Shown here: piece after piece, positions 33,287 to 36,314 of the stretch
How the letters are laid out: every line of letters begins with the position of its first letter
Numbering within the stretch: the stretch's first letter is position 1
Assembly (NCBI RefSeq): GCF_000499845.2
Contig: NC_023756.2
Span: 44,094,291 to 44,158,290, forward strand
Source: Phaseolus vulgaris
Lineage: Eukaryota > Streptophyta > Magnoliopsida > Fabales > Fabaceae
Direction: 5' to 3'
Length of the DNA stretch: 64,000 nucleotides
The notes under the pieces: generated by a model
Databases searched by the model: none
The model's input: the letters and a program-made list of their open reading frames with translations, nothing else
What the model was told of the DNA's origin: nothing
Program-made: the position numbers and the translations under genes

Positions 33287-35000
33287 TCAACAGGGTAAAG
33301 TTTTGAAAGATAGATTATAACGCATGTAAGGTATGGTCATAGAGAGACTCGAGCACTCGGGATCCGTATATGCTGGGATTCCTTCAAAACACTGCGTACA
33401 GCGAAGCATCTGGGTTTACCTACAAAACCATTATTCAACTCAGAACATGAACAAAATAAACCCCCACAGCAGGTAGTCTATGCAAAGACACAGCTAGTAT
33501 ACGGCAAATGACAAGAAAAAAAACACGTATACAAAGACTATTATCCAAATTATGCCTTGATGTGAAATGGAAATGGAGCATGGATGAGAAGAACATTAGT
33601 CAAGCTTGCTACAGATTAATCATAAGGCATTATTAGCTAATCATTATTAACACTCAACTTTCACACCATTGATCGTATATAGATATAAACAAAAGCACAC
33701 CATCATCATCATCATGCCGAGTAGAAATATGTTCATAGAAAATTTTAAAGGAAAAACACTAAAAGAATCCCCTAGCCCCCTTATCATTAATAAAAAACAT
33801 TTTTTATTCAACAAAAACAAAGAACTGTATTTTCCATCATGTTCAATTGAAAATGGTAAGTAAAAATGCACCTTAGGGCAGAATAACTTAAAAAGTGAGC
33901 TTCTAAATAAAAACTTTGGACACCTACAAGCTCAACAAAAACTATAATGCAAAGAAATTTTCAATTTGTTTGAAATCTTATGTCATAAAAAGAATACTCC
34001 AGAATAAGGAAAACTATAGTCAATAATTGCAATCTAAGCTTAGATATAAATTCAGAGTCAAACAAAAGTAACTTGAGTCACAACATACACTTCCAAATTC
34101 AAAAGGCAACCAAAAAGATAAGGATAAAATTTTAATCCGATATTTAAATAAAAAGGTCCTTCATTGAATAATCCAACTAGAATATGTATCGCTAACATCA
34201 AGTCTAAGATTTGACGATATTGGCATCAATTATGTCCAACAAAGAAGAAACAGTCAATCATAAACCAGAAGAAAGTTCTTCAGACATTGGATCTATGGTT
34301 AAGAAAAATGCATTAGCATAGAATATAAAAAGTTGGCAACCAGTGCTGAAAGCAGGTTAAACAGCTCAACAGCTACATTGTATTTTTCAGCAGTTTAAAA
34401 CTAAATGTCCAAAGGAATAAAAGATTCTTGACTGTGTATGTTCACTGACAGTACTGACCTTCGTTGATTCCAGGCAGTGTTTCTGTGAGGAACATATTTT
34501 TGTTCGTGCTTTTCTGGGGGCAAGTAGTGGAGAGCTGGGGAGCTAAAAGACAAAAGCCAGCAATGTTAAGAGAAATTCTTATGAGCACATAAATAATAGC
34601 AATAAACTACATGTAAGAAGATATGCTAAATTTTCACCAGGTGTTGCCAGAAGCTTTGCAGAAATTGGTGGCGCCAGAGTGTGCAAGATAGGAGAACAAG
34701 AAAGTAACTCATATCAGAAAGCAGCACATTGGAGACAAAGCATCTGAAAAAATAATATTATAAAAGAATTAGAGAAACTCGATTTATTTTCAACAAAATA
34801 ATAGATGTAATCTAAAACCTATTCCAAAAATGCCACAGAAAAAGGGTAATAAAATTAAACCTTGATTCACAATCAAACATTCTAAGCAACACCACAGACA
34901 GATATGGAGGCAGAGCAGCGAGTGCAACCACCTCCAATACTGGTGCAGGTATTTTGGCTCCCCTTTCCTGCACCAGCAGTAGGAAGTATTTCATTGATTG
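33287..35000 (-). other. eRF1: Spliced 3' region of eRF1 with an open readthrough extension
   Basis: After the TAG the frame continues CAA TCA ATG. Predicted exon pieces are 35000-34861, 34743-34638, 34542-34459 and 33409-33287. The donors are CAAG/GTTTAA, CCTG/GTGAAA and GAAG/GTCAGT; the acceptors are TTTTTTCAG, GTCTTTTAG and AAACCCAG. Joined, the four pieces keep one frame open for 150 codons and end at a TGA (33289-33287). Every junction lies more than 55 nt after the TAG, so normal termination would leave exon-junction complexes downstream and invite nonsense-mediated decay. Introns of 117, 95 and 1049 nt are inferred from sequence only. The third is the least certain, because a TAG acceptor 10 nt upstream would close the frame early. 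Confidence 0.6.
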
Positions 35001-36314
35001 CTATTCAGAGTCATCAAACACGCCTCCATCATCAGAGAAATCATCAAATGTTCGCATATCAAGCTGGTAACGCAAGATCCCTCCTATCCCTCCAAAACCT
35101 CTGCAAAACTGTGAACCTTCTTGAGATTTATTGGTGACAAACTCAAGAGTGCAACCAAACCGTTTGTATTCATTTGCAAACCACTCCAGAAGAGACAACT
35201 TCTCCTGAACCTCAAAATCAGCGGAGCTCTCAGGATCCCGAAAATTGCTTTGGTTGGCCTCCTGTTCCTTGTTATAGTGCTTAATGACAATCTCTCCAGA
35301 AGCACTATTTTTCAAGGAATATCTGTTCATATCCAGATTTTCCCAGACAATAAGTGTCTCAACAGCACCCATCTCCAACGCTTTCAGGGTATCATCAACC
35401 CCAAAAACATACTTTCCTGTATCCTGACTGATTTCCTCAAAGTATTTCCCAATCAATCGTTTCTCCTGGATAAATTTTACATTGGAAAGAATTTCAGCAG
35501 ACAATTCAATAGCCTGATTAAAACCATTTTCTCCTCCATATGAAACATCAACAACATTAAGTATTTTTGCCTGAAGTCGAGGATCAAACATGTCTGACTG
35601 ACTAAGCTCAGTTTTGAAATCAGCAGAACCAGCTAGAATTAATCCAGAAACATTGGGTTGACTGGTGGTAGGATTGATATAGAACTGGGTAGCAAGCTCT
35701 GCCGTCTTCCTGACATAGTTATGACGCTTCTCCATGCGAAGACGGGCAAAACGCAGAGCTGATTGCCCTCCTCTTCCATGTTTCTTTGGGAGATCCACAC
35801 TGAATTTATGAAGCACCTCTCTTGTATTACCACTCAATGTCCCAAACAAAGTACCGTTACCATCCATGACAATAAATCCAAACTTGTCATCAGACTCCAG
35901 GAGCTCATTCAAAGCTTCAGTGTGAAACTTATTGTCACAGAGATAAAGGGATGCATTAATAGGTCTGAAAGGCTCAAAATCAATAGTGACCTTCTTTTCC
36001 TTCCCATCTTCAGTCACAATTGTGCCAGTATACAGAACGAGCCCATTTGGAGGAACCTTGTTATAGAGCTTAAGCCTCTGTTGAGCAGAAGTGATTGCAC
36101 CTAGCACTGACTGTCGGTTAACCCTACTTTTGATGTTTGAAGCAGTTCCAAACTCATCACCAAGCATCTTCGTGACACGAGATATTTGATCTCGCGGGGG
36201 CATGATAAGGGAAATCATACTTGTCCCATTTCCTCTGGCAGCCTCAAGAGCTTTGATCAATTTCTTGATTTTCCACACCTCAATGTTCTTATCAGTCTCG
36301 TGACCTTCAGCCAT
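35001..36314 (-). CDS. eRF1: Eukaryotic peptide chain release factor subunit 1 (eRF1)
   Basis: A 437-residue protein, the normal length for plant eRF1, encoded without a CDS intron. eRF1 enters the ribosomal A site, recognises all three stop codons and triggers peptide release together with eRF3. Visible motifs are NIKS (residues 60-63) and YLCDNKF (124-130) in the stop-codon-reading N domain, and GGQ (182-184) in HGRGGQSALRF, which releases the peptide. The C domain ends with the acidic DDFSDDGGVFDDSE tail. The start at 36314 (MAEGHETDKN) fits the family; upstream in-frame codons lie in the predicted leader intron, whose acceptor AG abuts the ATG. The stop is TAG followed by CAATCA, a leaky context, and predicted introns follow in the 3' UTR. 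All catalytic motifs are intact. Confidence 0.98.
   Translation of the reverse strand: MAEGHETDKNIEVWKIKKLIKALEAARGNGTSMISLIMPPRDQISRVTKMLGDEFGTASNIKSRVNRQSVLGAITSAQQRLKLYNKVPPNGLVLYTGTIVTEDGKEKKVTIDFEPFRPINASLYLCDNKFHTEALNELLESDDKFGFIVMDGNGTLFGTLSGNTREVLHKFSVDLPKKHGRGGQSALRFARLRMEKRHNYVRKTAELATQFYINPTTSQPNVSGLILAGSADFKTELSQSDMFDPRLQAKILNVVDVSYGGENGFNQAIELSAEILSNVKFIQEKRLIGKYFEEISQDTGKYVFGVDDTLKALEMGAVETLIVWENLDMNRYSLKNSASGEIVIKHYNKEQEANQSNFRDPESSADFEVQEKLSLLEWFANEYKRFGCTLEFVTNKSQEGSQFCRGFGGIGGILRYQLDMRTFDDFSDDGGVFDDSE

What the first reader, a model, noticed from the sequence alone, without database searches (positions are those of the whole stretch)
33287..35003. eRF1 ends in a leaky UAG-CARYYA stop followed by a 150-codon open extension across three predicted 3' UTR introns
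Seen directly: the TAG of a complete eRF1 CDS is followed by CAATCA, which fits CARYYA, the context known from tobamovirus-type readthrough. The frame remains open for 140 nt to a good donor. With GT-AG splicing of introns at 34860-34744, 34637-34543 and 34458-33410 it stays in frame and ends at 33287. Known: plant eRF1 has been reported to regulate itself by readthrough combined with nonsense-mediated decay triggered by 3' UTR introns. Inference: when eRF1 is scarce, ribosomes read through, strip the exon-junction complexes and stabilise the mRNA. A phase-compatible 150-codon extension suggests selection to keep the readthrough path open through the last junction, and possibly an extended eRF1 isoform with a hydrophobic, Cys-containing tail.
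Basis: partly seen in the sequence, partly recalled or inferred. Interest (0 to 1): 0.85.

Follow-up and report, generated by a model that had tools for sequence, protein, structure and literature searches.

The report
Bean eRF1 leaky stop with hairpin
A bean gene for the protein that ends translation itself ends in a leaky stop signal, part of a plant self-regulation circuit that is already known, and just after that stop lies a very stable RNA hairpin that may make it leakier.

Summary
The window holds a complete plant eRF1 gene (36314-35001, minus strand, 437 aa), from a bean (Phaseolus). Its UAG stop is followed by CAATCA, which fits CARYYA, and the spliced downstream frame stays open past the predicted 3' UTR introns. 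The core observation is confirmed. The last acceptor is probably wrong: TTTTGTAG|GT (33420) fits the P. coccineus model, giving 121 codons and a stop at 33386-33384, not 150 codons. Intron 3 rests on annotation only.

The regulatory reading matches the known plant eRF1-1 readthrough-NMD circuit, so in kind it is not new. The extended-isoform reading is not supported: the tail changes frame among legume models, and V. angularis probably has an early stop.

Both paralogous eRF1 genes in the same genome lack it; they end in TAA without CARYYA. Its 3' arm fits four of nine non-legume tail models. I infer that it boosts readthrough. That is untested, and base-pair covariation could not be shown.

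The parts
35001..36314 (-). eRF1 CDS, 437 aa, uninterrupted, TAG stop at 35003-35001
34995..35003 (-). UAG-CAAUCA leaky-stop context (fits UAG-CARYYA)
   Evidence: motif class read in passages of PMC3542737
34929..34988 (-). 19-bp stem-loop: 7 bp UACUUCC/GGAGGUG plus 12 bp UGCUGGUGCAGG/CCUGCACCAGUA; begins 12 nt after the UAG
   Evidence: absent after the stops of both paralogs
34861..35000 (-). 3' part of the exon holding the stop: first 140 nt of the readthrough extension
34744..34860 (-). predicted 3' UTR intron 1 (117 nt)
   Evidence: exon junction present in P0121, P0122, P0123
34638..34743 (-). 3' UTR exon 2, in readthrough frame
34543..34637 (-). predicted 3' UTR intron 2 (95 nt)
   Evidence: exon junction present in P0121 and P0122
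34459..34542 (-). 3' UTR exon 3, in readthrough frame
33420..34458 (-). predicted 3' UTR intron 3, corrected acceptor TTTTGTAG|GT (reader had 33410); annotation-only support
33384..33419 (-). end of readthrough frame VNPDASLYAVF and second stop TGA 33386-33384
33050..33055 (-). AATAAA, possible polyadenylation signal
   Evidence: 331 nt after the start of the second stop

Best explanation
This is the readthrough-and-NMD-regulated eRF1 gene of a Phaseolus species, one of three eRF1 genes found in its genome. Most ribosomes stop at UAG. The 3' UTR introns, the first 140 nt downstream, leave exon-junction marks that expose the mRNA to nonsense-mediated decay. When eRF1 is scarce, more ribosomes read UAG-CAAUCA, cross the spliced junctions in an open frame and stop near the 3' end, which spares the mRNA and restores eRF1. 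Shown here: sequence, frame, paralog contrast, predicted stem-loop. From the literature on Arabidopsis: readthrough, NMD and the feedback. Inferred: that it works the same way here, and that the stem-loop 12 nt after the stop raises readthrough, as stem-loops do in some viral and Drosophila mRNAs. The tail peptide is probably a by-product.
For: UAG-CAAUCA and the open spliced frame. Indirect evidence for introns. Both paralogs, found, end in TAA-GCATCT and TAA-TTGTCT, with -12.1 and -10.1 against -30.6 kcal/mol in the same 65 nt (-12.1 and -17.9 against -38.6 in 100 nt), and their unspliced frames close after 17 and 13 codons, against 62 here. The stem-loop ranks first of 15,984 windows, z -6.1. 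Of 17 tail-bearing gene models, 16 fall in the eudicot group with this gene (77 of 118 rows, SH-aLRT 91), while the tail-less legume paralogs of Canavalia, Mucuna and V. radiata fall outside. Literature passages: Arabidopsis eRF1-1 has CARYYA after TC1 and a second stop TC2 near the polyadenylation signal (PMC6755094); Aethionema has an intron 124 bp after the stop (PMC8641386); Drosophila dfr has a stem-loop at +9 to +59 that promotes readthrough (PMC13170385); viral readthrough structures protect plant reporters from NMD, with as little as 1.5% readthrough said to suffice (PMC6277124).
Against: There is no transcript, ribosome footprint or protein from this species. The stem starts 12 nt (22 nt in the alternative fold) after the stop rather than the ~8 nt typical of viral structures. 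Viral type I CARYYA signals need no structure. In dfr, moving the stem 3-9 nt further away lowered readthrough, and a plant virus structure placed 7 nt downstream of a reporter's stop gave no NMD resistance (PMC6277124). Two mammalian-test candidates with RNA structures showed little readthrough (PMC4132726). Pairing is not proven by covariation: of seven paired sites forced to change in relatives, four stay paired as wobble and three break. Sahoo 2022 saw no ribosome footprints past the Arabidopsis eRF1-1 stop (PMC9293766). In V. angularis the frame probably closes early.
Confidence: 0.78

Rival explanations
1. Only CARYYA drives the readthrough; the stem-loop does something else, such as marking the 3' UTR for decay or cleavage.
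For: Type I signals work without structure. Structured 3' UTRs destabilise plant mRNAs and are degraded by XRN4 and SOV (abstract of PMC10885604). A UPF1-dependent cleavage lies 22 nt after the Arabidopsis eRF1-1 stop (PMC6755094), next to where the 12-bp stem begins here (+26).
Against: The position close behind a leaky stop is what known readthrough stimulators show. Whether Arabidopsis has the stem-loop was not tested.
Confidence: 0.4
2. A 54-nt frame-neutral intron (GTGTTT...GTGCAG, 35021-34968) removes the stop, so the extended protein arises by splicing, not by readthrough.
For: Gene models of Vigna mungo, Glycine soja, Cicer and Trifolium repens use this junction or one very near it.
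Against: Weak donor GGC|GTGTTT; very short intron for a plant (recalled); the acceptor lies inside the stem. More likely the annotation pipelines forced the spliced 3' UTR into a coding model by jumping over the stop.
Confidence: 0.07
3. The readthrough product is a functional extended eRF1 isoform.
For: The first half of the tail is read in this gene's frame in 11 of the 12 legume tails compared.
Against: Frame changes in exon 2 in 3 of those 12; probable early stop in V. angularis; no Pfam match.
Confidence: 0.07
4. An ordinary 3' UTR: leaky context, open frame and stem-loop are chance.
For: TAGCARYYA occurs 12 times in the window; 1.3% of random 363-nt frames are open.
Against: All coincide at one stop of the gene family known for this regulation, none at the two paralogs, and the stem is the strongest sampled in 64 kb.
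Confidence: 0.06

Closest known systems
Plant eRF1-1 readthrough-NMD autoregulation (Nyiko et al. 2017, NAR 45:4174; not held, known here from passages in PMC6755094, PMC11062462, PMC9293766, PMC8641386)
   Same: eRF1 gene, CARYYA after the first stop, long 3' UTR with intron more than 50 nt after the stop, second stop near the 3' end
   Different: Three predicted 3' UTR introns here against one mentioned in the passages on Arabidopsis and Aethionema; a strong predicted stem-loop behind the stop, not mentioned in any passage I read
Type I viral readthrough signal, UAG-CARYYA of tobamoviruses (passages of PMC3542737)
   Same: UAG and all six following bases fit
   Different: Cellular mRNA; added stem-loop; function regulatory rather than making a viral protein
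Stem-loop-stimulated readthrough: viral type II and Drosophila dfr (passages of PMC3542737, PMC13170385)
   Same: Stable stem-loop shortly after the stop; dfr also UAG
   Different: Different hexanucleotide class for type II; spacer of 12 nt here; no experiment

Membership tests
Plant eRF1-1 readthrough-NMD gene | Encodes eRF1 | tested here: met
   Three eRF1 Pfam domains; best solved relative is a 437-residue eukaryotic release factor 1, 8ip8
Plant eRF1-1 readthrough-NMD gene | First stop followed by CARYYA | tested here: met
   TAG CAATCA
Plant eRF1-1 readthrough-NMD gene | Intron more than 50 nt downstream of the stop | tested here: inconclusive
   Donor 140 nt after TAG; splice model with indirect transcript support in Glycine; no RNA from this species
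Plant eRF1-1 readthrough-NMD gene | 3' UTR over 350 nt | tested here: inconclusive
   About 695 nt spliced to the AATAAA on the model (from coordinates); the real 3' end is not known
Plant eRF1-1 readthrough-NMD gene | In-frame second stop past the introns | tested here: met
   TGA 33386-33384 on the corrected splice model; holds only if that model holds
Plant eRF1-1 readthrough-NMD gene | Only one of the eRF1 paralogs carries the feature (recalled for Arabidopsis) | tested here: met
   One of three in this genome
Plant eRF1-1 readthrough-NMD gene | mRNA is an NMD target; readthrough falls when eRF1 rises | not testable with these tools
   Needs experiment
Stem-loop-stimulated readthrough | Stable stem-loop close behind the stop | tested here: met
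   Predicted: 19 bp, -30.6 kcal/mol, 12 nt after UAG; alternative fold starts at 22 nt
Stem-loop-stimulated readthrough | Pairing conserved by covariation | tested here: inconclusive
   Only peptides of relatives at hand: 4 of 7 forced paired-site changes keep a wobble pair, no double change seen
Stem-loop-stimulated readthrough | Readthrough falls when the stem is broken | not testable with these tools
   Needs reporter
Functional C-terminal extension by readthrough | Tail peptide conserved in frame | tested here: not met
   Exon-2 half out of frame in 3 of 12 legume tails: Spatholobus, Sphenostylis, Cicer; gene models, so partly dependent on their splicing

The most novel reading that the evidence does not exclude
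Eudicot eRF1 mRNAs carry a composite readthrough signal, UAG-CARYYA plus a conserved stem-loop whose 3' arm GCCTGCACCAG is kept while the reading frame through it is not. The stem-loop sets how strongly termination responds to the eRF1 level, a built-in release-factor sensor, and the readthrough tail is selected only for being open, not for its sequence.
Probability: 0.35. Interest if true: 0.62.

Novelty: new member of a known kind. Interest (0 to 1): 0.42.

Why it matters
The plant eRF1 circuit is a case of a termination factor measuring its own activity at its own stop codon. If the stem-loop is part of that sensor, the circuit uses two stacked readthrough signals. Its gain would become testable by simple stem mutants, in a gene where the two paralogs serve as natural controls. 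It would also suggest that recurrent 'extended eRF1' gene models in public annotation are artefacts of jumping over the stop.

Tried and rejected
Relatives as DNA: a viral-contig scan found none. The genome-contig scan found one archaeal relative, which was not used. So no plant DNA outside the window's own genome was at hand, and all cross-species statements rest on protein records, mostly gene models that favour open frames. The first protein search scored 7993 candidates and listed 120, so tails in unlisted proteins were not seen. Rfam: one sub-threshold chance hit on the other strand. The last protein search, with joined tails, gave 11 hits among 7994 scored candidates, of which only P0125 was new.

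Long models not counted as tails: P0118 (fused to a GAPDH-like sequence), P0089 and P0072 (tails without resemblance), P0001 (eRF1 duplication), and models with extra residues at the N-terminus only. Left out of the tree: P0001, P0002, P0120-P0125. Of nine non-legume tail models (Theobroma P0050, Solanum P0064, Malus P0066/P0098/P0100/P0106, Prunus P0092, Sesamum P0091, Persea P0067), four show [AT]CT[SG]A (P0050, P0064, P0066, P0091), and they are the only ones among the 125 proteins fetched. Four start with SALG just after the place and cannot show it. Persea reads ACPALA.

Mistakes: one search's first translation was one base off (corrected). In one search the script left one weak inner pair (+41/+48), so its V. 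unguiculata +48 'BREAKS' should count as unpaired. The donor printed for the 54-nt piece is three bases off; the sequence line of that call is right. The second sequence was taken at a wrong place and is ignored.

Papers: Nyiko 2017, Firth 2011 and Zhang 2024 Cell Reports are not held, so I cannot say that the stem-loop is unpublished. Searches of the held library (searches listed 20 of 491 and 20 of 53) showed nothing that by title, start of abstract or the passages I read describes it for eRF1. PMC3711448 does not mention eRF1; PMC7064760 names it only in its reference list.

Full report
What is there. The minus strand of the window carries one uninterrupted eRF1 reading frame, 36314-35001, 437 residues, with all three eRF1 Pfam domains. 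Its nearest relatives are legume eRF1 proteins: Vigna mungo 98% over 99% of the query, V. unguiculata 99% over 94%. The window lies in a 537.68 Mb genome. The predicted tail is 96% identical to an 81-residue Phaseolus coccineus model over 68% of its length. I therefore take the source to be a Phaseolus, probably common bean; the match to that assembly size is recalled.

The stop. TAG at 35003-35001 is followed by CAATCA, fitting UAG-CARYYA, the type I readthrough signal of tobamoviruses (definition read in passages of PMC3542737). The motif alone is weak evidence: TAGCARYYA occurs 12 times on the two strands of the window.

The extension and its introns. Introns 1 and 2 look real. Their GC is 22% and 28%, against 45-49% for the three exons. 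The same junctions are present in tails of other legumes, among them P0122, from a 1866-nt JGI contig; if, as I assume, that gene caller does not splice, it is a spliced soybean-type transcript. Intron 3 is less sure. The P. coccineus model ends STK|VNPDASLYAVF, V. angularis has SKK|VNPDASLY and Glycine soja KVNPDDLSHAVF; the V. mungo model goes elsewhere. The first three point to the acceptor TTTTGTAG|GT at 33420, so the extension is 121 codons with TGA at 33386-33384. P0122 reads on past the matching donor. Even with intron 3 retained the frame stays open for 24 codons after exon 3. An open frame of this length has a frequency of 0.28-0.36% in dinucleotide shuffles and 1.3% in random 363-nt frames of the window. 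The introns were chosen by a reader who sought an open frame, so these figures overstate the surprise.

Is the tail a protein? Probably not. Of 12 legume tails compared with the spliced window, 11 agree with frame 1 in the first half (V. unguiculata P0042 is in frame 3). In Spatholobus P0123, Sphenostylis P0124 and Cicer P0028 the exon-2 half is read in frame 3, in V. mungo P0003 and V. unguiculata P0042 in frame 2. Part of this may come from the splice choices of the models. For Spatholobus and Sphenostylis the peptides most simply mean a 4-nt insertion and a 2-nt deletion within exon 2 (read by eye). The V. angularis tail P0125 has valine where one base change from the window gives TAG in frame 1, at the eleventh codon; other valine codons would not, so this is likely, not certain. 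The tail has no Pfam match. Gene models are biased towards open frames, so their openness does not show selection. The recurrent 540-580-residue 'extended eRF1' models jump over the stop, in several legumes by the same or a nearly identical 54-nt piece (35021-34968 here). I take that for an annotation artefact; a true exitron remains possible.

The stem-loop. Searches show a perfect 10-nt inverted repeat, CTGGTGCAGG/CCTGCACCAG, within a 19-bp stem at 34988-34929. It begins 12 nt after the stop and folds at -30.6 kcal/mol (z -6.1; 0 of 200 shuffles as low). Slid in steps of 8 nt over both strands of the whole window, it is the most stable of 15,984 stretches of 65 nt. The coordinates of the 65-nt stretch were chosen after seeing the fold. 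In a 100-nt fold the lower seven pairs are exchanged for a second hairpin and the 12-bp stem then starts 22 nt after the stop. The 143-nt segment was found once in the genome (that search says a missing match does not prove rarity).

Controls within the genome. Two further eRF1 genes, each 92% identical, were found. They end TAA-GCATCT and TAA-TTGTCT, have -12.1 and -10.1 kcal/mol in the same place, and their unspliced frames close after 17 and 13 codons, against 62 for this gene. So context, open frame and stem-loop go together in one gene of three. In a quick tree of 118 proteins, 16 of 17 tail-bearing models lie in a 77-row eudicot group with this gene (SH-aLRT 91, below the 95 mark), Persea being the exception. 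The tail-less legume paralogs of Canavalia, Mucuna and V. radiata lie outside. That group also holds 61 rows without an annotated tail, legumes such as Arachis, Abrus and Acacia among them; whether their DNA carries one was not tested.

Conservation of the stem-loop. In four of nine non-legume tail models (Theobroma, Solanum, Malus P0066, Sesamum) the residues [AT]CT[SG]A fit GCCTGCACCAG, the 3' arm, but in another frame than in the bean; these are the only matches among the 125 proteins fetched. Four others begin just after it and Persea differs. This hints at constraint on RNA rather than protein; the 5' arm of those species was not seen. In legumes, changes forced by peptides hit seven unpaired sites of 22 and seven paired sites of 38. 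Of the paired ones, +34, +56, +66 and +71 keep a G-U pair while +64, +73 and +74 break (with the +48 correction told under Tried and rejected). The break at +64, in Glycine, could be repaired by a silent change that peptides cannot show. This is compatible with pairing and no proof of it.

Mechanism. In Arabidopsis, eRF1-1 carries CARYYA after its first stop, a second stop near the polyadenylation signal, and a 3' UTR that draws NMD. Readthrough partly protects the mRNA, and UPF1-dependent cleavage lies 22 nt after the stop (passages of PMC6755094; PMC11062462). Aethionema has a 3' UTR intron 124 bp after the stop (PMC8641386), against 140 nt here. The bean gene fits this circuit. Sahoo 2022 found no footprints past the Arabidopsis eRF1-1 stop, so the extended protein is at most rare there. 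The stem-loop adds a second signal of the kind that promotes readthrough in Drosophila dfr (PMC13170385) and viral type II cases. Against it: the spacing is longer than usual there, moving the dfr stem further away lowered readthrough, and two mammalian-test candidates with RNA structures gave little readthrough (PMC4132726). Its role here is inference.

Verdict. The finding is real and mostly known in kind. The new parts are the corrected splice model, the paralog contrast and the stem-loop. The functional-isoform reading should be dropped.

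Noticed in passing
window 23847-25217 + and 25308-26081 +: Copia-type LTR retrotransposon pieces: gag/Pol beta-barrel and integrase core with SH3-like domain.
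   Followed up: partly
window 40107-40928 -: Copia-type reverse transcriptase fragment (RVT_2), about 4 kb from the 5' end of the eRF1 CDS.
   Followed up: partly
window 1760-2755 -: Reading frame with DUF4408 and DUF761 (cotton fibre expressed protein) domains.
   Followed up: partly
window 59814-60800 -: Reading frame with a KIP1-like domain.
   Followed up: partly
window 34978-34977 (+26/+27 after the U of the stop): The base of the 12-bp stem lies next to where the UPF1-dependent cleavage was mapped in Arabidopsis eRF1-1 (22 nt after the stop, PMC6755094). Across species and unverified.
   Followed up: no
Solanum tuberosum model P0064, tail: The tail holds two similar stretches (VEQEACTGARGLSPYSAAHVLSKK and VKQEGCIGVRELTPDLATHVLSNK), as if the segment after the stop had been duplicated.
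   Followed up: no
window 35022-35029 and 34904-34911: A perfect 8-nt inverted repeat (GCCTCCAT/ATGGAGGC) spans the stop and the stem-loop and could close them into a larger structure.
   Followed up: no
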